DNA from: a virus
Direction: 5' to 3' (one strand)
DNA: 59,633 nt
IMG/VR virus record: IMGVR_UViG_3300023184_000136
Span: 1-59,633 of that record
Part shown: positions 18,306 through 57,266 of the stretch, in pieces
Position numbering within the stretch: position 1 is the first letter of the stretch
Layout: every line of letters starts with the position of its first letter
Notes under the pieces: model-generated
Databases searched by the model: none
The model's input: only the letters and a program-made list of their open reading frames with translations
Told to the model about the DNA's origin: nothing
Made by a program: the position numbers and the translations under genes

Positions 18306-18313
18306 TATTTATT
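18306..18313 (+). promoter_or_regulatory. Putative phage late promoter motif TATTTATT
   Basis: TATTTATT 4 nt upstream of the ATG at 18318, directly after a terminator. Confidence 0.5.
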
Positions 18314-18317
18314 GTAT

Positions 18318-18767
18318 ATGAAATTCATTATAAAAGAATCACAATATCAAAGGTTATTATTAGAGAGTAACCATATGAATTTTTATGATAATTTTCCTAC
18401 TATATTGGAAGAACTATTACAAGTTCCAGAATTTAGGGAGGATTTAAAAGAACATTCATATAATAAAAATGGTTATGTTAATTGGTGGAAGAGAGCGAAG
18501 GAAGATATGCAATTTTTAATTCGTGACAAATACTGTGGGTTATTTAAACAATTGGCTAGAAAGTATAAATTTAAATTAGATGTGGATGGGTATGGCGAAA
18601 AATATTTATGTATGACGTATGGAGGGATGTTTGGAGAAGCATTTTTTCACCAACTAAGGGGAAATAGATATGTTGGTGATGATGCACCAATAGATGATGG
18701 TCCCTATGAATATGAAGGACCCCCTTGGGTTTCTGAGTTTTTTATGAAAACATTTTACGGTAAATAA
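18318..18767 (+). CDS. Tagged protein of unknown function
   Basis: 149 residues from ATG 18318. The N-terminus MKFIIKESQYQRLLLES contains two [I/L]-x-E sites (IKE-S and LLE-S) in the first 17 residues, like other tagged proteins in this window. The body is rich in Tyr, Lys and Gly with a short acidic stretch (DDAPIDDGPYEYEG). No domain is recognised. It is a single-gene unit between two terminators with a late-type motif in front. A packaged head protein is inferred. Confidence 0.65.
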   Translation: MKFIIKESQYQRLLLESNHMNFYDNFPTILEELLQVPEFREDLKEHSYNKNGYVNWWKRAKEDMQFLIRDKYCGLFKQLARKYKFKLDVDGYGEKYLCMTYGGMFGEAFFHQLRGNRYVGDDAPIDDGPYEYEGPPWVSEFFMKTFYGK

Positions 18768-39045: not shown

Positions 39046-42012
39046 ATGGCAAATATTATAATTTATCCCAGTAACGCAATTTCAAGACAACCTGGGAGGA
39101 TACCAAAAATAGATTTTTCAAATACCGCAACTATTACTTTACAAGTAATATCTGGGGCTACTATCCAATTTGGAACCAATGCTTTGGTGGTAAATCCAAC
39201 TCTTGGTGCAGTTTCTGCAACAACAATAAATGTTAAAGATTATTATGCTGTCACAGGAGTTCAAGTAATTAATGGTACAAGTTCATGGATTGGACCATCA
39301 ACAAACGTTTTAGGTAATACAGGAGCTCAAGGTAATACAGGAGCTCAAGGCTCAACAGGAGGAGGAGGTTCAGCAGGTGCTCAAGGTAGTACAGGGGCAC
39401 AGGGTTCAACAGGGGCACAAGGTGCAACTGGTAATACAGGTGCTCAAGGTGCTACGGGGGCTCAAGGAGCGATAGGTAATACAGGAGCGATAGGTAATAC
39501 AGGAGCACAAGGTTCAACAGGTGCACAAGGTTCGACAGGTGCTCAGGGCCAAACAGGTAATACAGGTGCTCAAGGTGCTACGGGGGCTCAAGGAGCGATA
39601 GGTAATACAGGAGCAATAGGTAATACAGGAGCCCAAGGAGGAACAGGGGCACAAGGTAGTACAGGTGCTCAAGGCCAAACAGGTAACACAGGAGCCCAAG
39701 GGTCAGGAGGTGCAACAGGAGCCCAAGGTAACACAGGAGCAATAGGTAATACAGGAGCTCAAGGAGCTGGTGGCGGAACAGGAAATACAGGAGCTCAAGG
39801 AGCGACAGGAAATACGGGTGCTCAGGGTTCAGGTGGTGGAACAGGAAATACAGGAGCTCAAGGTCAAACTGGAAATGCGGGAGCTCAGGGAGCGACAGGG
39901 AATGTAGGTACAACAGGACCTGGCGGTAATATAGGTAACACGGGAGCTCAAGGTTTAGGTGGTGGAACAGGAAATACAGGAGCTCAAGGTCAAACTGGAA
40001 ATGCGGGAGCTCAGGGAGCGACAGGGAATGTAGGTACAACAGGACCTGGAGGTAATACAGGAAATACAGGAGCTCAGGGTTCAGGAGGTGGGACAGGAAA
40101 TACAGGAGCTCAAGGGGCACAAGGAGGTGTATATGGTGTAGGCCAAGTATCATATCAAATATGGTCCGTCAATGCTGGTAATGGCAGTCTGTCTCAATAT
40201 GGTCAGTACCCTACTGATTCAACTGATTTTAACAAATGGTTTAATACCGCATATTCTAACTCAACTTTATACTCATCAGGTAATTCTACACCTGGAGTAA
40301 TTTGGGATTTTGTAGTTTGGACGACAATTACAAATGCTGGTATAACAATTCCAGCTACAGCGGGAGATTATATTGCGGTACAAACTTTTTCAACATTCAG
40401 ACCAACAGAAACTGGAACTTATACGTTTACCGCAGAATCAGACGATTCTTGCGACCTTTTTATTAACGGCACAAATGTTGCTAGTTTTTACGGTGGTAGA
40501 GGTACACCCGCATTAGGTACCACAGTGGGAACAATATCTTTAACCGCTGGAGTTAATTACTCAATGAGAGTAAGAATGCAGGAATATGCTGGTGGAGAGG
40601 GATTAAGAATATTTTGGAAAAAACCGTCTCAATCAACTGGAGGCACGTGGTATCAAAATACGGAGGAGGTTGGATTATCAGGCGCTCTTGGTCCAATAGG
40701 AGTTCAAGGAGCTCAGGGCCAAACAGGTCATCCAGGAGCTCAAGGGTCAGGAGGAGCAACGGGAGCTCAAGGTAATCCAGGTCAAACGGGTAATACAGGG
40801 GCTCAAGGAGCGGGAGGAAACGTAGGTACAACAGGACCTGGCGGTAATATAGGTAACACGGGAGCTCAAGGGTCAGGAGGAGCAACGGGAGCTCAAGGTA
40901 ATCCGGGTCAAACAGGACATCCAGGAGCTCAAGGAGCGTTAGGGGCAGGAGGACCACAAGGAGCTGGAGGAGCCACAGGAGCACAAGGTGCTCAAGGTGC
41001 TCAAGGTACTGTGGGACCACAAGGGGCACCAGGATTTCAAGGTAATAGAGGACCACAAGGACCGGGAGGACCAACAGGTGCTCAAGGTTCTCAAGGAGCT
41101 CCAGGATTTCAAGGAGGTGGAGGAGGACAAGGTTCTCAAGGAGCCACAGGACCAGGTGGTGGTACAGGACCTCAAGGTGCACAAGGAGCCACAGGACCAG
41201 GTGGTGGTACAGGACCTCAAGGTGCACAAGGTGCCGGTGGAAACGGAGGGCCAGGTGGTGGACAAGGTGCACAAGGTGCAGGTGGAAACGGAGGACCACA
41301 AGGAGCTCAAGGGTCTCAGGGTGGTTCAGGAAATAGTGGTGCTCAAGGAGCTCAAGGTCCAACAGGACCACAAGGAGCTCAAGGTCCAACAGGACCTCCT
41401 GGAATCAATTGTTATGGCGTTTATTTTTATCTAAATAATAACTGTTATTTTGCGTGTAATTATAATCAATATTATCTTTTAGGTTATCAACAATATTATA
41501 ATTATTTTGTATTTGCAACACCACACTATACAAGTTATACTAACTGTTTGAATACGAACTGTGATTTTGCTGGTCGTCAGTCAATTTACGGTAGTTATAT
41601 GAGTAATTTAATAGAATGTTGGTATGTATTTCCAACCTGTGGTGATGGAGATACTCTACAATATTATTGTTCTTATTTTTCGGATGAAGCATTAAAGACA
41701 GGTATTAAAACGCTTAAGGATGCTCTCCCTAAGTTGTTAGAACTTGAGGCGGTTGAATATGATTGGAATCAAAATCTTGGTGCTGACAAATACGATTACT
41801 TTAAAAGAAGAGGTAAATTACATACCATTGGATTAATTGCTCAAGACGTTAGAAAATATTATCCCGAAGTTGTAGGTATGCATGAAGATGGGTATTATTT
41901 TGTTGAATACCACAAATTAAATGCTGTTTTAGTTGAAGCTATAAAATCACAACAAATATTTATAGAAGATATTAAAGATGAATTAAACTTACTTGAAACT
42001 CTAATAAATTAA
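39046..42012 (+). CDS. Collagen-like tail fibre with PA14-like and S74-type domains
   Basis: 988 residues. An N-terminal head of about 90 residues is followed by a collagen-like Gly-X-Y stretch (about 91-365, many [12 protein letters not shown] units), a globular domain (about 370-545) with the pattern of a PA14 carbohydrate-binding domain ([20 protein letters not shown]), a second collagen-like stretch (about 546-785), a Tyr/Cys/Asn-rich segment (to about 880) and a C-terminal domain starting [12 protein letters not shown] with [14 protein letters not shown], the intramolecular chaperone of the endosialidase/Peptidase S74 type. Such domains help fibres to trimerise and are often cut off. Probably the longest host-binding fibre. 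Confidence 0.85.
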
Positions 42013-44093
42013 TGGCAAACGTACTCATATATCCTCAAGGGAAAGGTGGTAACACCAATCCACACGTTTTATTTGATGATGGAACTAATAAGCTTCAAAT
42101 AAATGTTACTAACGCATTGGTTTTTTCATCTACAACGGTGTCAAGTGGTGTAACTATTGGAACAGCAAGTATTATTGTTTCAGGGTCATCGACTGCGGGT
42201 TCTACTTATGTTGGTGCAACTCAAATGATTGATGCTACAGGTGTATGGGTAGGACCAACAACAGCAATTAAAGGACTCCAAGGAGCTCAAGGTGCTCAAG
42301 GTAATACAGGTGCACAAGGTAATACAGGAGCACAAGGTGCATCAACAGGTGCTCAAGGTAATACAGGTGCTCAAGGGGGTCAAGGTGCTCAGGGAGCTCA
42401 AGGGGCTGCAACGGGAGCTCAAGGTAATACAGGAGCACAAGGAGGACAAGGTGCTCAAGGTGCACAAGGAGCCGCAACAGGAGCTCAAGGTAATACAGGA
42501 GCTCAAGGAGGAACTGGTGCTCAGGGAGCTCAAGGAGCCGCAATAGGAGCTCAAGGTAATACAGGAGCACAAGGAGGACAAGGTGCTCAAGGTGCACAAG
42601 GAGCTGCAACAGGAGCCCAAGGTAATACAGGAGCCCAAGGAGGAACTGGTGCTCAGGGAGCTCAAGGAGCTGCAACAGGAGCCCAAGGAGCTATAGGTTC
42701 TCAAGGCGCTCAAGGTTCTCAAGGTGCTCAAGGAGCTTCAACAGGAGCCCAAGGTGCCCAAGGAGCTCAAGGAGGAACAGGAGCCCAAGGTGCTCAAGGA
42801 GCTTCAACAGGAGCCCAAGGAGCCCAAGGTGCTCAAGGAGGAACAGGAGCTCAAGGTGCTCAAGGAGCTTCAACAGGAGCTCAAGGAGCTCAAGGAACTT
42901 TAGGTTTCCAAGGAGCTCAAGGTGCTCAAGGAGCCGCAACAGGAGCCCAAGGTGCTCAAGGAGCTCAAGGAGGAACTGGTGCCCAAGGAGCTCAAGGAGC
43001 CGCAACAGGAGCCCAAGGTGCTCAAGGAGCATTAGGTTTCCAAGGAGCCCAAGGTGCTCAAGGAGCCAACACAGGAGCCCAAGGTGCTCAAGGTTCTCAA
43101 GGACCAACAGGAGCACAAGGAGCACAAGGAGCTTCAACAGGTGCACAAGGAGCACAAGGAGCTTTAGGTTTCCAAGGAGCCCAAGGTGCTCAAGGTGGTA
43201 ATACAGGAGCCCAAGGTGCTCAAGGTTCTCAAGGACCAACAGGGGCTCAGGGAGCTCAAGGGGCCAACACAGGGGCTCAAGGTGCTGCAGGAGCTGGAGG
43301 ACCGCAAGGGGCTCAAGGTACTGCGGGAAGTACGGGAGCACAAGGTTCTCAAGGAGCGGTAGGCGCTCAAGGGCCTCAAGGACCAGCAAGTGGAGTTGCA
43401 GGTGCCCCTGGACCAACAGGACCAACAGGTGCTCAAGGTTCCCAAGGACTACAAGGTGGAGGAGGTGCGACAGGAGCCCAAGGAGCCCAAGGTTCAGGTG
43501 GTGGTGGTGGTGGCCAAGGTTCTCAAGGTGCTCAAGGTTCAGGTGGTGGTGGTGGTGGCCAAGGTTCTCAAGGTGCTCAAGGTTCAGGTGGTGGAGGAGG
43601 AGCCACAGGTGCACAAGGTTCTCAAGGAGGAGGAGGAGGACAAGGTGCTCAAGGTCCGGTAGGTGCTGACGGTCCACAAGGAAATACAGGACCCCAAGGA
43701 GATACGGGTAATCAAGGCCATCAAGGTCTTGCAGGACCAGGAGGACCTTCGGATATAAGACTTAAAGATAATGTTGTTAGACTTGAAAATAATTTAGATG
43801 TAATTCAAAAACTTCAAGGTGTCCTTTTTGAATGGGATGACGATAGTGTTTATTTAAGAGGTAACAAAAGTCTTCAATCCCAAGCAGCATTTTCAGGTGA
43901 TTCATTTGGGTTTATTGCTCAGGAGATGGAAAAAGTTATACCTGGAGTTGTTGATACTAATAGAGATGGGTATAAATCTATTGAATATGGTCAACTTGTA
44001 AGTTTAGGGATTGGTTCAATACAAGAACAACAAAAAAGAATAGATTCGATATTAGAAAGAATAAACAAACTTAAAGAATTAGTAAGTGGCTGA
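42012..44093 (+). CDS. Collagen-like tail fibre with S74-type chaperone
   Basis: 693 residues, starting within the stop codon of the previous fibre gene (TAATG). The N-terminal head (about 1-85) resembles that of the first fibre ([13 protein letters not shown] versus [13 protein letters not shown]). A nearly continuous collagen-like region follows (about 86-575), largely of [13 protein letters not shown]-type units. The C-terminal domain begins [18 protein letters not shown] and contains [16 protein letters not shown], an S74-type chaperone. Fibre or whisker role inferred from architecture. Confidence 0.85.
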
Positions 44094-46215
44094 AGATATA
44101 ATAATAACCCCAGCGTCGGGTAAAATAGACTTTTATGATTCTGCATCCACAGTTACAACATGGGTGATAGAAACAGGTACGCTTAAATTTAAAAGAGGCG
44201 CAACTACGTATCTTTCTATGGATAATACTTATCCAAACTTCAGAGTGACTTCTGCAGATTTAAGATTAATTACATCACTTACAAACAACTCAGGAAACTT
44301 GATAGATTCAACGGGTTGGTTAGGTACAAGATATACTCAAGGTGCTCAAGGTGCTCAAGGAGGACAAGGTGCTCAGGGAGCTCAAGGTGGAACTGGAGGA
44401 CAAGGAGCACAAGGTGCTCAAGGTTCTACAGGTGCTCAAGGCTCTACAGGTGCCCAAGGAGGACAAGGAGCACAAGGAGCTCAAGGAGCAACAGGAACGG
44501 CCGGAGCTCAAGGTTCACAAGGAGGACAAGGTGCTCAAGGTGCTCAAGGTTCAACAGGAGCCCAAGGTTCACAAGGAGCTCAAGGAGGACAAGGAGCACA
44601 AGGTGCTCAAGGGGCGACAGGAACGGCCGGAGCTCAAGGTTCACAAGGAGGACAAGGTGCTCAAGGAGCCCAAGGTTCGACAGGTGCTCAAGGAGCCCAA
44701 GGTGCTCAAGGAGGACAAGGCGCTCAAGGAGCTAAGGGAGGTCAGGGAGCCACAGGAGCTCAAGGTTCACAAGGAGGTCAAGGAGCTCAAGGAGCACAAG
44801 GTGGTGGTGGAGCCACAGGAGCCCAAGGTGCTCAAGGAGGTCAAGGAGCTCAAGGAGCGCAAGGTGGTGGTGGAGCCACAGGAGCCCAAGGTGCTCAAGG
44901 TGGACAAGGAGCTCAAGGAGCTCAAGGAACTAAAGGAGGTCAAGGAGCTCAAGGTTCACAAGGTGGACAAGGAGCTCAAGGAGCACAAGGTGGTGGTGGA
45001 GCCACAGGAGCCCAAGGTGCTCAAGGAGGACAAGGTGCTCAGGGAGCTCAGGGTGGAACTGGAGGACAAGGAGCTCAAGGTTCACAAGGAGGTCAAGGTT
45101 CACAAGGAGGAGCTGGAGGCGCTGGTGCTCAAGGTTCACAAGGAGGAACAGGAGCCCAAGGTGCTCAAGGTGGACAAGGAGCTCAAGGAGCTCAAGGAGC
45201 TCAAGGTTCACAAGGAGGTCAAGGTTCACAAGGAGGAGCTGGAGGTGCTGGTGCTCAAGGTTCACAAGGAGGAACAGGAGGACAAGGTTCTCAAGGTGCT
45301 CAAGGACCTAAGGGTGTTCAAGGAGCTCAAGGTTCACAAGGAGGTCAGGGAGCTCAAGGAGGAGCTGGAGGAGCCGGAGCTCAAGGTTCACAAGGAGGAA
45401 CAGGAGGCCAAGGAGCTCAAGGTGCTCAAGGTTCCCAAGGAGGTCAAGGAGCTCAAGGAGCGACTGCTGCAACCGGTGCTCAAGGTGCTCAAGGAGCTTC
45501 ACCAACAGGACCAACAGGACCAGGAGGTGCTCAAGGTTTCCAAGGAGGACCAGGAGGGCAAGGAGCTCAAGGGTCTCAAGGACCAACAGGACCAGGTGGA
45601 GGACAAGGTGCTCAAGGAGCTCAAGGACCAACAGGACCAGGAGGTGCAACAGGAAGTCAAGGTGCTCAAGGACCAGTAGGACCGGGGGGTGCAACAGGAA
45701 GTCAAGGTGCTCAAGGACCAGTAGGACCAGGTGGAGGTCAAGGTGCTCAAGGAGCTCAAGGACCAGGAGGACCGCAAGGACCAGGAGGTAATCAAGGAGC
45801 TCAAGGACTTCAAGGTGGTGCAGGTATTCAAGGAGCTCAAGGAGCCAAAGGACCTGTCGGAGACCAAGGACCAACAGGACCACCTTCGGATATAAGATTT
45901 AAAAAGAATATTAGAAATATAGAGACACCACTTACAAAATTATTAAAAATAAGAGGAGTTGAGTTTATTTGGAAAAGACCAAATGATGATGGTGATAATA
46001 CGGTTGACATAGGATTTATTGCGCAAGAAGTTGCGGAGATATTCCCTGAATTAGTTTATAGTGGTAATAACACAACGGATTTGAAAAAAGTTAAGTATCA
46101 CGAAATAGTTTCAATTTGTCTTGAGGCGATAAAAGAACAATTTGAAGAATTAGATGAAAGTGAGACTAGATTAGAATATTTTGAAAATAGAATAAAAGAA
46201 AAGGGGTTGATTTAA
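44086..46215 (+). CDS. Third collagen-like tail fibre with S74-type chaperone
   Basis: 709 residues with a GTG start at 44086 overlapping the previous stop by 8 bases. The N-terminal head (about 1-82; [20 protein letters not shown]) differs from those of the two upstream fibres, so it may attach elsewhere. Collagen-like region about 83-600. The C-terminal domain [20 protein letters not shown] with [16 protein letters not shown] is of the S74 type and close to that of the second fibre. The gene is closed by a bidirectional terminator. Confidence 0.85.
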
Positions 46216-52208: not shown

Positions 52209-52435
52209 TGGTACAAAATGAAATGGTAAATGGACCTGCTCATTATGGCGGGGTGGATAATCCATACGAAGTAATTAAAGTCTGCGAAGCTTGGGGATTA
52301 GATTTCGATGCGTATCTTTTCAACGTGGTTAAATATGTTGCAAGGGCTGGTAAGAAAGATGAAACAAAAGAACTTGAAGATTTGAAAAAGGCTGCATTTT
52401 ATTTAGACCGTAAAATTAAAAACTTAGAGAAATGA
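52208..52435 (+). CDS. DUF3310 family protein
   Basis: 75 residues. The sequence PAHYGGVDNPYEVIKVCEAW, then GLDFDAYLFNVVKYVARAGK and EDLKKAAFYLDRKI is the typical DUF3310 pattern found in many phages (HY....E.I......GF..GN..KY..R...K....DL.KA..YL...). Sometimes labelled nucleotide kinase, without clear proof. Belongs to a tight operon with the APS-kinase-like gene, overlapping it by 4 bases. Confidence 0.8.
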   Translation: MVQNEMVNGPAHYGGVDNPYEVIKVCEAWGLDFDAYLFNVVKYVARAGKKDETKELEDLKKAAFYLDRKIKNLEK

Positions 52436-52866
52436 TATATTGGTTAACAGGACAACCTGGTGCTGGTAAGACAACATTAGCCACTTGGATACAATCAAGT
52501 TTTCCCAATAAGTCTATGATTGTGGATGGGGACGACCTTCGTGAAATCTTTATTAACAAAGACTACAGCGAGGAAGGTAGACGTAAGAATATTGAGAAGG
52601 CTCAGATACTTGCCAAATTTTTACATCATAAAGGATATACTGTGATTGTATCTTTAGTATCACCTTTTAGGGACCAAAGAGAAGAATTCAAGGTAGAGAT
52701 GAAAGATGATTTAATAGAGGTATATGTACATACCCAAAATGTTAGAGGTAGAGAACAGTTTCACGTAAACTATGAAGAACCTTTAAGTCTCTTCATTGAT
52801 TGTGACACTACAGATAGTAGTGAGTATGCAACATTTTTAGAATTAAGAAGAAAATTAAAAATATAA
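52432..52866 (+). CDS. Adenylylsulfate (APS) kinase-like P-loop kinase
   Basis: 144 residues. Walker A GQPGAGKTTLA near residues 7-17, followed by the kinase core with VDGDDLREIF (APS-kinase signature D-G-D-x-x-R) and YSEEGRRKNIEKAQILAKFL. In cells CysC phosphorylates adenylylsulfate. Length is a little short of the family (about 180-200) and the C-terminal part that shapes the substrate site is reduced, so a different small-molecule or nucleotide substrate is possible. It pairs with a nucleotidyltransferase gene, sharing one base. Confidence 0.75.
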   Translation: MIYWLTGQPGAGKTTLATWIQSSFPNKSMIVDGDDLREIFINKDYSEEGRRKNIEKAQILAKFLHHKGYTVIVSLVSPFRDQREEFKVEMKDDLIEVYVHTQNVRGREQFHVNYEEPLSLFIDCDTTDSSEYATFLELRRKLKI

Positions 52867-53267
52867 TGGAAAAAATTCACGTAGAAGGAGACCCGAAACT
52901 AAAGAATACTCAAGGTAAACAATATTCAATGTTTATCGGAAGATGGCAACCGTGGCATTCTGGTCACAAATGGTTAATTGACCAAAGATTAAAGGAAGGT
53001 AAAAATGTTTTGATTTGTATCAGAGATGTCAAACCTGATGAAAAAAACCCCTTTACCACTGAACAAGTTCATTCGAATATATTATTTGAATTGTTGGATT
53101 TAATTAGTGAAGGAAGAGTTGAAATTATCAAAATCCCTGACATCGAATCAGTAAACTTTGGTAGAGGAGTTGGTTATGATATTATTGAACATATACCACC
53201 AACAGAAATAAGTGAGATATCGGCAACTAAAATTAGAGAACAATTAAAACAAGAGGGAAAGTTATGA
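52866..53267 (+). CDS. Cytidylyltransferase/NMNAT-fold nucleotidyltransferase
   Basis: 133 residues. The HxGH nucleotidyltransferase motif is seen in FIGRWQPWHSGHKWLIDQRL near residues 24-36, and the ISATKIREQL motif (ISSTxIR-type) near residue 121. Members add AMP or CMP to small phosphates (nicotinamide mononucleotide, glycerol phosphate, pantetheine phosphate). Next to an APS-kinase-like gene and a methyltransferase gene, it may make a nucleotide-linked compound for modification or NAD recycling. Substrate not deducible. Confidence 0.72.
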   Translation: MEKIHVEGDPKLKNTQGKQYSMFIGRWQPWHSGHKWLIDQRLKEGKNVLICIRDVKPDEKNPFTTEQVHSNILFELLDLISEGRVEIIKIPDIESVNFGRGVGYDIIEHIPPTEISEISATKIREQLKQEGKL

Positions 53268-54156: not shown

Positions 54157-54164
54157 TATTTATA
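54157..54164 (+). promoter_or_regulatory. Putative phage late promoter motif TATTTATA
   Basis: TATTTATA 17 nt upstream of the ATG at 54182, after a terminator. Another AT-rich stretch (TTATAAATAA) lies just before the start. Confidence 0.5.
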
Positions 54165-54181
54165 AGGATATTATAAATAAA

Positions 54182-55141
54182 ATGGCTGACATCGTTATAA
54201 ACAAAAAACAATTAAATTTAATCAAGGAACAACAAGTACTTAACGAGTCGTTGTTAAGCATCGAGAATGTATTAATGGCTGTTGGATTCGTACCTGTTAT
54301 TGGAGAATTGGCTGACATTGCTTTAATATGCTATTATCTTTATAAAGGTGAAAAATTATACGCGGCGTTAATGTTGATTGCTCTTATACCTACAGTTGGT
54401 GATTTTATTGTTAAACCAATTATAAAATTATTTCAAGGTAGTAGAAAAGGAGCGGTTGCGTTAAAAACTGGCGGTGTAAAATTAACTGAGTATTTAGCCA
54501 AAAATCCTGAAGCTGCTGCTAAATTTGCTAAATTAGGAAAATATGTAAAAACTCCTGCAGTTGAAAAAACAGTACAGGGGATTACAAAGGTGAACTCAAG
54601 CTTAGGTTCAAAATTAAAATCAGGATTGAGTGAAATAAGTGGAGGAAGTGTTATTGCCGGAACCAAGGCAGCTGCAAAAGAAGTTGCTGCGGGAGGTAAA
54701 TTTGGTAAAGGACTTAAGGACTATTTTCAAGGAGAAAGATTAACTAATTACTTTGTTAAACATGGTGTTGCACCTGAAACTGGAATTAAAAGATGGTGGT
54801 TGAACGTACAAGCTGGTGGAGATAGAAGAGCTGCGTTCAGAAAATTTATTAGTACTAATAATTTACTTGCTTACTTTGGAATTCCTTCTTTGACAACATT
54901 TGAAAGGAAGATGTCTGAAGATGCTGAATTTAGAAAAAAAGTTGCTGATGACCCTAAAACAAGTGACTACATTGCCAAGAATTATAATGATGACTCTAAA
55001 AAATCGTCAGAATCACAAGCATCTAACAACACGGCACAAACCACACAAACTACACCAAATAAAAACGATAACCCATTAGTAGGATTAATTGGAGGTTTGT
55101 TTAATAATCAATTAGGTAAAGCCGCCTTATCAACAATTTAA
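54182..55141 (+). CDS. Tagged membrane-active protein
   Basis: 319 residues. N-terminus MADIVINKKQLNLIKEQQVL carries IKE-Q, then LNE-S. Two hydrophobic stretches near residues 36-85 have the pattern GFVPVIGELADIALICYYLY, then ALMLIALIPTVGDFIVKPI, similar to the membrane-spanning pretoxin region (VPVVGE.AD......IPVVGD) of polymorphic toxins. The middle is Ala/Gly/Lys-rich, and the C-terminal part is charged and then disordered with Asn/Thr. It could be an injected pore or envelope-crossing protein. No toxin domain is seen. Late-type motif upstream. Confidence 0.65.
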   Translation: MADIVINKKQLNLIKEQQVLNESLLSIENVLMAVGFVPVIGELADIALICYYLYKGEKLYAALMLIALIPTVGDFIVKPIIKLFQGSRKGAVALKTGGVKLTEYLAKNPEAAAKFAKLGKYVKTPAVEKTVQGITKVNSSLGSKLKSGLSEISGGSVIAGTKAAAKEVAAGGKFGKGLKDYFQGERLTNYFVKHGVAPETGIKRWWLNVQAGGDRRAAFRKFISTNNLLAYFGIPSLTTFERKMSEDAEFRKKVADDPKTSDYIAKNYNDDSKKSSESQASNNTAQTTQTTPNKNDNPLVGLIGGLFNNQLGKAALSTI

Positions 55142-55151
55142 AATAAAAGAT

Positions 55152-55523
55152 ATGAAAGAAGAAATAACACTCAAACTTGTCCAAATACAATTACAGTTCA
55201 AATTTTTACATTGGCAAACATTTGGAGATGCTAAACATAAAGCTTATGGAGAAATTTATGAGGCTATGGGAGGTAATATAGATAAGTTAGTAGAGGCTAT
55301 GATGGGAAAATATGGAAGAGTCCAATTTGATTCAGAATTTTCTATTATGTTCCAAGACATCTCAGCATTAAGTGTTCAAAACTTTATGGATGGAATCACT
55401 GAATTCTTAGTGGGTATGACAGAACAATTAGACCCAAAATATGATAGTGACTTATTAAACATCAGAGATGAAATTTTGGGTGACATAAATCAAACAAAAT
55501 ACAGACTTACATTAAAATATTAA
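55152..55523 (+). CDS. Ferritin-like (DUF5856-type) protein
   Basis: 123 residues. Four helices with FKFLHWQTFGDAKHKAYGEI near residues 19-38 and YEAMGGNIDKLVEAMMGKYG following. The HWQT...HK.....E arrangement resembles the Dps/ferritin-like four-helix fold, in the short phage DUF5856 group. Metal ligands are not fully conserved in what I can see. It lies between two tagged genes with gaps of 10 and 1 bases. Confidence 0.65.
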   Translation: MKEEITLKLVQIQLQFKFLHWQTFGDAKHKAYGEIYEAMGGNIDKLVEAMMGKYGRVQFDSEFSIMFQDISALSVQNFMDGITEFLVGMTEQLDPKYDSDLLNIRDEILGDINQTKYRLTLKY

Positions 55524-55524
55524 T

Positions 55525-55869
55525 ATGGCAAAAAAAGTAATACGATTGACTGAGGCTGACTTAACAAATGTCATCAAGAGAGTAATCACAGAACAAAGTG
55601 AAGAAAGAAATATCACAAGGGCTATTCAAAAGTTTTTAAACAAAACAATGAAAGCAGGATTAAGTGAAGATGGTAGAACAGGACGTAATTCTGCAACAGA
55701 AGCAGCAATTTCAAAATACCAATCTAGAATTGGAGTATATCCTTCAGATGGTACGTGGGGTCCAAACACATGGGATAAGATGCCGGAACAAGATAGAAAA
55801 TTATTGAAGGACCTTATTGCTAAAGAGGGTGGACCCGTGGATACATTTTTAAATTGGTTAGGAGTTTAA
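55525..55869 (+). CDS. Tagged peptidoglycan-binding-like protein
   Basis: 114 residues. N-terminus KVIRLTEADLTNVIKRVITE followed by QSEE is the clearest form of the tag: LTE-A at 8-10 and ITE-Q at about 22-24. The remainder ATEAAISKYQSRIGVYPSDG, then TWGPNTWDKM matches the peptidoglycan-binding-like (PG_binding_1) repeat. It could anchor cargo to the wall or be part of an entry device. Overlaps the next gene's start by one base. Confidence 0.68.
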   Translation: MAKKVIRLTEADLTNVIKRVITEQSEERNITRAIQKFLNKTMKAGLSEDGRTGRNSATEAAISKYQSRIGVYPSDGTWGPNTWDKMPEQDRKLLKDLIAKEGGPVDTFLNWLGV

Positions 55870-57266
55870 TGAAAAAAATAATATCAGAATCAGGATTAAG
55901 AGACATTTCAGCTTTAAGGAAAAGATATCCTAAAGCTGAAATTTATTTTCACCAAGACTTGGACGGTGTCACAACCGCTATTGCGATGAAGAAATATCTT
56001 GAAGATAATGGTATTAAGGTTGTTGGTTCTCACATAATTCAATACGGAGATAAAGAATTTGCCGTTAAAAAGAATGATGCTAAAGGAGACGTAATGCCGG
56101 TTTTAGTTGATTTTGCTCATGGTAAACCAATGTTCAAGATACATACGGACCACCATGATAGACAAGTAGGTGCTGATAAAGACACATCAAAGTCATTCAG
56201 ACAAGCTCGTTCAAATGTTGAAACAATATCTCAAATTGTTTCTCCAAAAGATTTATTTCCAAGTTCGGATGTCCTTTTAATTAATACTGTAGACTCTGCA
56301 GATTTTGCCCGTCAGAATATTACACCTGAAGATGTTGTAAATTACCTTTTTCGTTTTGATAAAGAATTACCACTTCAAAAAAACAAAATGTTATTAGGGT
56401 TTGTTATTAACAAATTAGTTTTAGCTTTCAAAAACAGACCAGGATTTTTGGAAGGATTGGTTATGGATAGTGAGCCTTCATTAATGTCAATTCTTACTAA
56501 CATAAAGAAATGGATGAAAGAAACTAATGCCGTTGGTACAGAAGAACTTCAACATAATGCCAAAGACTATATGAAATCAATGGAAGGGGTTCCAAAAGTT
56601 GAAGATAGTATTATATCTCAATACGGAGGAGGTTCAATGTTTAAACCAGGTTCATATGACCGTTATACCCCTTTTAAGAACAATCCTGACGCTGATTTTT
56701 TAATCATGTCTTGGCCAATGGGGTTAGTTCAAGCGTCTTGTAATCCATTTAAAAAGGACAGAGAATTGAAAGGAGTTAACTTAGGTGAGATAGCTCAAGA
56801 AGTTTTGGGAAGATGGGAGTCTAAACTTAAAGAAAAGATGATTCCTTTGTCTACAGTTAAATGGGTTAGTGAAACAAGCGTTGGACCTGAAAGTATTGGA
56901 TTTACATTTCAAGACTTTAATGCCATTTATGGTGGAAAGTTTGAGAACCTACCAAACGGAGAAAAAGCGCTTAATCATATTAAAGATATGATGGAGACAC
57001 CATTCAAAGACTTACCTGAGGAACATAGAGAAATGTTAGATAAGATTAAAGTAAGTGCGTGGGATATAATTCAAGCCAATTCAGGAGGTCACAAATGTAT
57101 TACAAACATCGGAGGTTTAAGTTATTTAGGGAGAGGTACAAGACCACCTCAAGGAACATATCGTTATGACTCAAACAAAGAAGACCATCCGTACGTTAAG
57201 TTCGTGAAGATGATTGCCCAAGAATTTGAAAATAAATTAAAAGAGAAGATTCAAGAATCAAAATAA
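55869..57266 (+). CDS. Tagged DHH-family phosphoesterase-like protein
   Basis: 465 residues from ATG 55869 (upstream TTG 55854 lies in the previous gene). N-terminus MKKIISESGLRDI has ISE-S. DHH-superfamily motifs: YFHQDLDGVTTAIAM (His-x-Asp-x-Asp-Gly, near residue 30), VLVDFAHG, HTDHHDR with the DHH triad near residue 97 and NTVDSADFAR near 144. The family includes RecJ, oligoribonuclease NrnA and cyclic-dinucleotide phosphodiesterases. A DHHA1 domain is not obvious. It could degrade small RNA/DNA or a second messenger after infection. Substrate unknown. Confidence 0.75.
   Translation: MKKIISESGLRDISALRKRYPKAEIYFHQDLDGVTTAIAMKKYLEDNGIKVVGSHIIQYGDKEFAVKKNDAKGDVMPVLVDFAHGKPMFKIHTDHHDRQVGADKDTSKSFRQARSNVETISQIVSPKDLFPSSDVLLINTVDSADFARQNITPEDVVNYLFRFDKELPLQKNKMLLGFVINKLVLAFKNRPGFLEGLVMDSEPSLMSILTNIKKWMKETNAVGTEELQHNAKDYMKSMEGVPKVEDSIISQYGGGSMFKPGSYDRYTPFKNNPDADFLIMSWPMGLVQASCNPFKKDRELKGVNLGEIAQEVLGRWESKLKEKMIPLSTVKWVSETSVGPESIGFTFQDFNAIYGGKFENLPNGEKALNHIKDMMETPFKDLPEEHREMLDKIKVSAWDIIQANSGGHKCITNIGGLSYLGRGTRPPQGTYRYDSNKEDHPYVKFVKMIAQEFENKLKEKIQESK

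What the first reader, a model, noticed from the sequence alone, without database searches (positions are those of the whole stretch)
55869..57266. Tagged DHH-type phosphoesterase, possible injected anti-signalling enzyme
A RecJ/NrnA-type DHH protein with complete His-x-Asp-x-Asp-Gly and Asp-His-His motifs also carries the tag. If packaged, it would act at once on entry. DHH enzymes can cut oligonucleotides and cyclic dinucleotides, which are messengers of antiphage systems such as CBASS and type III CRISPR. This is an attractive, testable role.
Basis: inference. Interest (0 to 1): 0.55.

Follow-up and report, generated by a model that had tools for sequence, protein, structure and literature searches.

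The report
Tagged DHH phosphodiesterase in giant phages
A giant phage encodes a nucleotide-cutting enzyme whose first seven residues look like a "pack me into the head" label, so it may be injected with the phage DNA; what it cuts is unknown, but countering host alarm signals is a leading possibility.

Summary
Observation holds. ATG 55869–57266 encodes a 465-aa DHH/DHHA1-fold protein with HxDxDG, DHH, two further Asp and GGH motifs, and a short N-terminal tag, MKKIISE|S. Of 461 relatives found, the 80 kept (and the window) all have [LIV]xE|[ST]G. The key new evidence: tags are lineage-specific. Homologues in 634–735 kb phages start MISKYNQFINE|E, MLRKYGQFINE|E, MIKEFHNFALNE|E, like other proteins there; models of those tags, trained without T4, rank T4's real capsid-targeted IPIII and IPII first and second of 43 T4 genes. 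The 735 kb homologue fits only with one extra residue. A bacterial homologue has a signal-peptide-like start instead. A 317 kb relative has T4-type portal, capsid protein and S77 protease; its predicted capsid-protein cut site and its DHH tag both read LINE|. Packaging is likely (0.7), not shown. Substrate is open: nearest folds PggH, PAP phosphatase, RecJ. Anti-signalling gains from an equally tagged 2H phosphoesterase in two giant phages (in one, weakly Acb1-like), and loses from the gene's above-median conservation. New variant of a known kind: jumbo-phage DHH enzymes as counter-signalling is a printed prediction; a tagged, packaged one was not seen in my searches.

The parts
55869..57266 (+). 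DHH/DHHA1-fold phosphodiesterase gene, 465 aa, stop included
55869..55889 (+). N-terminal tag MKKIISE, predicted cut after Glu7
   Evidence: [LIV]xE[ST]G in 81 of 81; held-out score; residues 1-5 pLDDT < 50
55860..55864 (+). AGGAG ribosome-binding site before ATG 55869
   Evidence: read
55950..55967 (+). motif I HQDLDG (residues 28-33)
   Evidence: H28, D30, D32 and G33 invariant
56109..56111 (+). motif II Asp81
   Evidence: invariant; motif number recalled
56148..56156 (+). motif III Asp-His-His (94-96)
   Evidence: invariant
56292..56294 (+). motif IV Asp142
   Evidence: invariant; motif number recalled
57084..57092 (+). DHHA1-type Gly-Gly-His (406-408)
   Evidence: invariant
55525..55869 (+). 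upstream gene overlapping the DHH start: long-tag protein with PG_binding_1 domain (23.6 bits, cut-off 23)
   Evidence: its family is immediately upstream of DHH in 65 of 81 loci
55152..55523 (+). untagged DUF5856 protein in the same run of genes
54182..55141 (+). tagged 319-aa protein (...LIKE|QQ), first gene of the run leading to DHH
54157..54164 (+). TATTTATA, putative late promoter of the run 54182-57266
   Evidence: within 60 nt upstream of 46 of 371 genes in the 317 kb relative, other orientation 16

Best explanation
It is a DHH/DHHA1-fold metal-dependent phosphodiesterase that a T4-type giant phage probably packages into its head. Steps. (1) Late transcription from a TATTTATA promoter, together with two other tagged genes (inferred). 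(2) The N-terminal peptide MKKIISE acts as a capsid-targeting sequence and draws the enzyme into the prohead core (inferred from tag swapping and T4 precedent). (3) The S77 prohead protease cuts after Glu7 and frees the enzyme (inferred). (4) It is ejected with the DNA and works before any phage gene is expressed (inferred). (5) It hydrolyses short oligonucleotides or nucleotide messengers with its two-metal DHH site (chemistry from the superfamily; substrate not known). The likeliest purpose is to blunt host nucleotide signalling. Estimates: fold 0.97; tag real and modular 0.85; packaged and cut 0.7; anti-signalling purpose 0.4.
For: Fold. Tag conserved in 81 of 81. Tag swap: three 634-735 kb phages have DHH starts of another form, shared with other proteins there; in a held-out score the LR745206 DHH tag is equalled by 0 of 10869 internal Glu sites, and the window's by 1 of 5351 in its own lineage's model. 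T4 yardstick: scored with the LR745206 and LR756501 tag models, T4's IPIII and IPII rank 1 and 2 of 43 T4 genes (4 of 10869 and 9 of 6662 internal sites as high). The bacterial homologue L162 has a signal-peptide-like start instead. RNA ligase starts with a tag in LR745206 and LR756502 and without one in LR756501 and the 317 kb phage, so tags are add-ons. Head system: Gp23 240 bits, Portal_T4 264 bits and Peptidase_S77 77.9 bits in the 317 kb relative; its capsid protein reads LINE|A, as do 74 of 80 relatives (in the other 6 the stretch was not located), and its DHH reads LINE|S. Five of 80 DHH relatives, at least two of them near-identical, carry a C-terminal extension after an internal ITE|Q; a TseH-like domain scores over the cut-off in one of two scanned and just under it in the other. 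Equally tagged in LR745206: a 2H (34.3 bits)-RNase_T fusion with a sub-cut-off Acb1 match, and a T4 Rnl1-type RNA ligase; LR756502 has a tagged unfused 2H protein and a tagged RNA ligase. Precedents: T4 capsid-targeting sequences and injected IPI (PMC9026906 passages); Tad1 injected by phiKZ (PMC13282480 passage).
Against: No proteomic or cleavage data. ESG[IL]R is conserved beyond the cut site, so Glu7 could be structural. The LR756501 DHH tag fails the ungapped held-out score (508 of 6662 internal sites score as high). An unanchored motif search did not single out the DHH tags. T4 IPI ranks only 6 and 8 of 43 in the same yardstick, and the window's DHH start scores poorly in the giant-phage model (425 of 10869), so the window's short tag is linked to T4's only through the homologues and the cut-site motif. 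S77 matches in LR745206, LR756502 and LR756501 are under the curated cut-off. At 79% identity to the 317 kb relative the gene is above the median of 72.7% (rank 16 of 55), unlike a typical arms-race gene. Other tagged giant-phage proteins with a Pfam match over the cut-off are a methyltransferase, a radical-SAM protein and UPF0227, which do not point to defence. No PADLOC match. No substrate-defining residue was identified.
Confidence: 0.5

Rival explanations
1. Packaged and injected, but for metabolism: a nanoRNase or RecJ-like exonuclease that clears short RNA/DNA ends at the start of infection, with no anti-defence role. (The rivals overlap, so the odds need not sum to 1.)
For: RecJ, PF0399 and nanoRNases are among the fold neighbours; above-median conservation; 461 relatives found in viral contigs.
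Against: Equally tagged proteins in LR745206 include a 2H-exonuclease fusion and an RNA ligase, which fit defence and repair as well or better.
Confidence: 0.25
2. Not packaged: the N-terminus is simply a conserved structural start of a late cytoplasmic DHH enzyme.
For: G9, R11 and I13 just after the site are as conserved as Glu7 in the 24-row alignment; no virion data.
Against: Giant-phage homologues have quite different starts that resemble other proteins of their own genomes and T4's real capsid-targeting sequence; residues 1-5 are not confidently folded.
Confidence: 0.2
3. A PAP phosphatase serving PAPS chemistry: an APS-kinase-like gene and an adjoining nucleotidyltransferase lie about 3 kb upstream.
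For: APS_kinase 68.5 bits at 52432, family present in 51 of 81 loci, many of them short contigs; a DHH PAP phosphatase is the second fold match (Z 15.2).
Against: Of 7 records with DHH searched, only the 317 kb one has APS kinase; three of the six without it are 634-735 kb long, two others are fragments and one is a bacterial bin.
Confidence: 0.08
4. Envelope or periplasm cargo: an exported nuclease that works with wall-binding and TseH-like partners.
For: Tagged PG_binding_1 gene next door; TseH-like extension in relatives; the bacterial homologue has a signal-peptide-like start.
Against: The extension occurs in 5 of 80 only; the 81 phage N-termini, 16 read as tags, not as export signals (by eye).
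Confidence: 0.07

Closest known systems
PggH, PAP phosphatase, NrnA/DhhP, NrN and RecJ (DHH/DHHA1 phosphodiesterases)
   Same: Fold; catalytic motifs correspond by recall. PggH 7d62 Z 16.7 over 268 residues, rmsd 4.3; PAP phosphatase 8a8k Z 15.2 over 279, rmsd 4.0; RecJ 2zxo Z 13.3 over 297, rmsd 4.0; NrN 9lqc Z 11.1 over 234, rmsd 4.2.
   Different: 12-13% identity in these four rows; below the Pfam DHH cut-off and far below the RecJ cut-off; conserved stretch YGGGSMFKPGSYDRY, not known to me from the others; GGH followed by ITNI two residues on, rather than the usual AAG (recalled); tagged.
T4 internal proteins IPI-IPIII and Alt with capsid-targeting sequences
   Same: Short N-terminal peptide ending in Glu, in a lineage with a gp21-type protease; tag models from giant phages pick out T4 IPIII and IPII; T4 sequences carry foreign enzymes into the head (PMC9026906 passages).
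   Different: The window's tag is seven residues and of another sequence; the cargo is a DHH enzyme; packaging not shown.
Acb1 and Tad1, phage anti-signalling proteins
   Same: Proposed purpose; Tad1 is described as injected by phiKZ (PMC13282480 passage).
   Different: Other folds and mechanisms (recalled); no substrate shown here.
DHH phosphodiesterases predicted in jumbo phages (PMC7824862)
   Same: That paper predicts that DHH enzymes of a small number of jumbo phages possibly counter nucleotide signals (passage).
   Different: The passages read mention no tag or packaging for them; whether this subfamily is among them was not tested.

Membership tests
DHH/DHHA1 phosphoesterase superfamily | catalytic motifs I-IV and the DHHA1 GGH | tested here: met
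   invariant in 11 rows
DHH/DHHA1 phosphoesterase superfamily | fold | tested here: met
Pfam PF01368 by score alone | curated cut-off 28.1 bits | tested here: not met
   19.4 bits; a divergent member, so filed by motifs and fold and not by this model
RecJ single-strand exonuclease | NCBIfam recJ equivalog cut-off | tested here: not met
   13.5 against 396.9 bits
NrnA/DhhP/PggH-type dinucleotide phosphodiesterase | hydrolysis of dinucleotides | not testable with these tools
   fold alike, activity unknown
NrN SAM-AMP phosphodiesterase | structural match and SAM-AMP hydrolysis | tested here: inconclusive
   Z 11.1, behind PggH and PAP phosphatase; activity unknown
T4-type capsid-targeted internal protein | short N-terminal peptide ending in a prohead-protease-type Glu site | tested here: met
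   for the giant-phage homologues
T4-type capsid-targeted internal protein | gp21-type protease in the same phage | tested here: inconclusive
   met in the 317 kb relative (77.9 bits); below cut-off in three giant phages; the window is a fragment and was not searched for it
T4-type capsid-targeted internal protein | presence in the virion, cut after Glu | not testable with these tools
   needs proteomics

The most novel reading that the evidence does not exclude
Giant phages carry a tagged, head-packaged enzyme kit aimed at the nucleotide alarms and RNA damage of host defence. The DHH enzyme is its most widely kept part, present with lineage-specific tags across distant giant-phage lineages; an Acb1-like 2H phosphoesterase (with an exonuclease in one phage) and a repair RNA ligase join it in some. 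The DHH enzyme would be an injected off-switch for a linear or conjugated messenger such as SAM-AMP or pNpN.
Probability: 0.3. Interest if true: 0.8.

Novelty: new variant of a known kind. Interest (0 to 1): 0.6.

Why it matters
A 2026 review names only one injected anti-signalling protein in jumbo phages, Tad1 (PMC13282480 passage). If this enzyme is another, phages can disarm host messengers before the first phage transcript. The lineage-specific tags also offer a sequence-only way to list the likely injected proteins of giant phages known only from metagenomes, for which virion proteomics is hard to get.

Tried and rejected
Unanchored N-terminal motif search: found only the generic M-K start and did not separate tags (own DHH rank 529 of 909, 113 of 515 and 22 of 371). 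It was replaced by the patterns, which were written after seeing the N-termini and whose counts include the DHH proteins, and then by scoring with the DHH rows left out of training, which is the evidence I rely on together with the T4 yardstick. In one search the 317 kb model had only 3 training rows; one search replaced it with 11.

First AlphaFold2 model (pLDDT 67.9) was poor because the alignment was shallow; the second used distant relatives. PDB search by sequence profile and by single sequence found no DHH enzyme. PADLOC gave nothing. Cellular origin: 3 relatives from 76 candidate stretches: one on a contig with a terminase-like neighbour (L161, my reading), one in a Myxococcales MAG, one partial; 1 of 377 genomes drawn from the phylum of that MAG, the MAG itself. 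Prevalence test: found in 5 of 5 contigs chosen for holding DHH and 0 of 5 chosen for the capsid protein; the contigs are fragments, so this says nothing. Capsid proteins of LR745206 and LR756501 were found only as short pieces, so the cut-site comparison rests on the window's own lineage. The capsid-protein site is placed by position and motif; alignment to mature T4 gp23 starts only at residue 72 of the query, so it is a prediction.

Changed on re-reading the calls: the 2H-exonuclease fusion is in one giant phage, not two (the second has the 2H protein alone); this left the odds as they were, because the T4 yardstick was added on the other side.

Full report
What is there. ATG 55869 to stop 57266 encodes 465 aa behind AGGAG, its start overlapping the stop of the gene before. 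The record is a virus record of 59,633 bases. Sequence libraries barely see the family: Pfam DHH 19.4 bits against 28.1, PHROG DHH E 0.077, RecJ 13.5 against 396.9, PADLOC nothing. The motifs are nevertheless complete and invariant in 11 rows that reach down to 23% identity: H28, D30, D32, G33, D81, D94-H95-H96, D142, G406-G407-H408. The second AlphaFold2 model, made with distant relatives, reaches pLDDT 82 and pTM 0.83, with residues 1–5 under 50. Foldseek gives 41 PDB chains at E 0.001 or better, with RecJ and DhhP at the top. VIA-align puts PggH first (Z 16.7, rmsd 4.3, 268 aligned), then PAP phosphatase (15.2, 4.0, 279), PF0399 (14.3, 4.1, 320), RecJ (13.3, 4.0, 297); NrN bound to SAH-AMP is at 11.1 (4.2, 234). 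In the viral library the two strong matches, 63% and 40% identical, are uncharacterized proteins. So the enzyme class is firm and the substrate is not.

How widespread. A scan of viral contigs gave 465 pattern matches, 461 of them relatives; the best 80 were kept, 76–100% identical, one on a 317 kb contig. In annotated phages only 4 records match, all uncultured giant phages of 634–735 kb without annotation, two of them of the same length with the same match. In bacteria it is very rare: 3 relatives from 76 candidate stretches, and 1 of 377 genomes from the phylum of the Myxococcales MAG, the MAG itself. That MAG's protein (L162) begins with a signal-peptide-like stretch where the phages have the tag (by eye, no predictor run).

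The tag. All 81 sequences (80 plus window) have [LIV]xE[ST]G at the start, and Glu7 is invariant. More telling is what happens in distant phages. LR745206 begins MISKYNQFINE|E, LR756502 MLRKYGQFINE|E, LR756501 MIKEFHNFALNE|E, L158 MKKYTEFVNE|E, L160 MKIKFNEYILNE|E, and the L161 group M[KR]xxL[LYFN]E|SG. These forms follow other proteins of the same genomes: the KYxxFIxE type at 23 of 909 N-termini in LR745206 and 20 of 515 in the first 400 kb of LR756501, 0 of 371 in the 317 kb relative; the short IITE[SQ] type 2, 0 and 10; the long LTE[SN]DL type 0, 0 and 7 (patterns written after the fact, DHH included in the counts). With the DHH proteins left out of training, the LR745206 DHH tag is equalled by 0 of 10869 internal Glu sites and by 3 of 908 other N-termini. 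In a model of 11 tagged proteins of the 317 kb relative, the window DHH is equalled by 1 of 5351 and that relative's own DHH by 2 of 5351, or 4 and 17 with the start Met ignored. Across lineages the fit is lost: the window DHH start is equalled by 425 of 10869 sites in the LR745206 model, and the LR745206 DHH by 983 of 5351 in the 317 kb model. The LR756501 DHH does not pass even in its own genome (508 of 6662) because it has one residue more before the Glu. Overall [LIV]xE[QS] near the start is enriched in all four sets: window 11 against 2.4 expected, 317 kb relative 42 against 15.3, LR745206 55 against 28.5, first 400 kb of LR756501 28 against 12.1.

Why the tag looks like head targeting. 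T4 capsid-targeting sequences are short N-terminal peptides removed by the gp21 protease, sufficient to bring foreign proteins into the head; IPI, an ejected T4 internal protein, blocks a restriction enzyme (PMC9026906, passages). As a yardstick I scored 43 of the 45 complete genes in 25 kb of T4 with the giant-phage tag models: IPIII and IPII (TYQEFIAE|A) came first and second in both (4 of 10869 and 9 of 6662 internal sites as high); IPI came 6th and 8th. The 317 kb relative of the window is T4-type in its head genes: Gp23 240 bits, Portal_T4 264 bits, Peptidase_S77 77.9 bits, Terminase_6N 46.8 bits. Its capsid protein has LINE|A at residue 60; the same occurs in 74 of 80 relatives, the stretch not being located in the other 6, and its DHH protein reads MKKLINE|S. 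The giant phages have only sub-cut-off S77 matches (20.1–24.1 bits, cut-off 27). TATTTATA lies within 60 nt upstream of 46 of 371 genes in the 317 kb relative (16 in the other orientation), including the portal, a collagen-like tail gene and several tagged genes, though not the capsid protein or terminase. In the window it stands at 54157, before the run of four genes that ends in DHH. I read it as a late promoter; that is inference.

Modularity. RNA ligase is tagged in LR745206 and LR756502 but untagged in LR756501 and the 317 kb relative, so tags are add-ons. Five of 80 DHH relatives carry a C-terminal extension after an ITE|Q motif, a second possible cut site; of two scanned, the TseH-like domain scored 29.0 and 26.0 bits against a cut-off of 27.

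What it might do. DHH enzymes cut c-di-AMP, pApA and nanoRNA (PMC12072042, passages). NrN of Bacteroides fragilis cuts SAM-AMP but not cA2–6 or pApA (PMC10600005, passages). A jumbo-phage survey predicts that DHH enzymes in a few jumbo phages possibly counter messenger defences and cites a DHH-DHHA1 nuclease that degrades a type III CRISPR messenger (PMC7824862, passages). A 2026 review calls Tad1, injected by phiKZ, the only anti-defence protein described in jumbo phages so far (PMC13282480, passage). Here, LR745206 also has a protein with the same tag type (MKLKKYKQFIKE|S) that joins a 2H phosphoesterase with two HLT motifs (34.3 bits, cut-off 27; Acb1 23.1 bits, under its cut-off 27) to an RNase_T exonuclease (31.8, cut-off 24), and a tagged T4 Rnl1-type RNA ligase (75.3 bits). 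LR756502 has a tagged 2H protein of 179 aa, unfused, and a tagged RNA ligase. This company favours work on RNA and nucleotide messengers. But it was seen in two related phages only, the 2H family being absent from the window, the 317 kb relative and LR756501; and of 20 tagged giant-phage proteins scanned, out of 32 listed, 15 had no match over a cut-off, while the other three with one are a methyltransferase, a radical-SAM protein and UPF0227.

Against anti-defence: the gene is 79% identical to that of the 317 kb relative, rank 16 of 55 shared genes, median 72.7%, while six of the seven other tagged window genes in that table (25490, 27664, 33955, 46212, 49176 and 55525; the tag of 49176 is by eye) are 57–70%; the seventh (47057) is 80%. 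That suggests a steady target rather than a moving one. The PAP-phosphatase idea fits the APS-kinase-like neighbour, but APS kinase is absent from the six other records searched, some of them fragments.

In print. Searches for capsid-targeting terms with prohead, jumbo-phage or metagenome terms and for DHH with jumbo phage, packaged, or CBASS listed no report that I recognised as a tagged or packaged DHH enzyme. Only open-licence PubMed Central papers were searched; I read passages of five papers and saw the rest as listings.

Noticed in passing
L128:8260-9573 (LR745206) and L258:1405-1944 (LR756502): 2H phosphoesterase starting with a T4-capsid-targeting-like tag; in LR745206 fused to an RNase_T exonuclease and Acb1-like by a sub-cut-off match. 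A candidate injected anti-CBASS enzyme.
   Followed up: partly
L129:10485-11744, L261:1264-2535, L262:1432-2238, L263:1357-2439: T4 Rnl1-type RNA ligase tagged in two giant phages and untagged in two other phages: a natural test of tag gain and loss.
   Followed up: partly
L007, L072, L073, L077, L079: DHH protein with a C-terminal extension after an internal ITE|Q motif; TseH-like domain in the two scanned (L077 29.0 and L072 26.0 bits, cut-off 27).
   Followed up: partly
L162:5824-7485: Myxococcales MAG homologue of the phage DHH enzyme with a signal-peptide-like start (by eye), suggesting an exported enzyme.
   Followed up: partly
window 54157, 3223, 6158, 27643, 33932, 39019 and others: TATTTATA 10-30 nt before genes; the most enriched upstream 8-mer of the 317 kb relative. 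Looks like a late promoter.
   Followed up: partly
window 52432-53267: APS-kinase-like gene directly followed by a small nucleotidyltransferase; possibly a PAPS-making pair.
   Followed up: partly
window 18312-18767: Small protein with a start MKFIIKES (second Met), the same short tag class as MKYIIKES in the 317 kb relative, with no Pfam match at E 0.01.
   Followed up: no
L165:1581-2942 and neighbours of L161, L166, L167: Amidoligase-like protein (PF12224 28.9 bits in L165, the only one scanned) upstream of DHH in another phage group, with starts near TLLE|S in several copies.
   Followed up: no
LR745206, many places: About three dozen proteins starting MKYLKxYKxFE or similar, many followed by a similar acidic segment (by eye): possibly a large expanded family of tagged proteins.
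   Followed up: no
window 39046-46215: Three adjacent collagen-like GAQG-repeat proteins of 693-988 aa.
   Followed up: no
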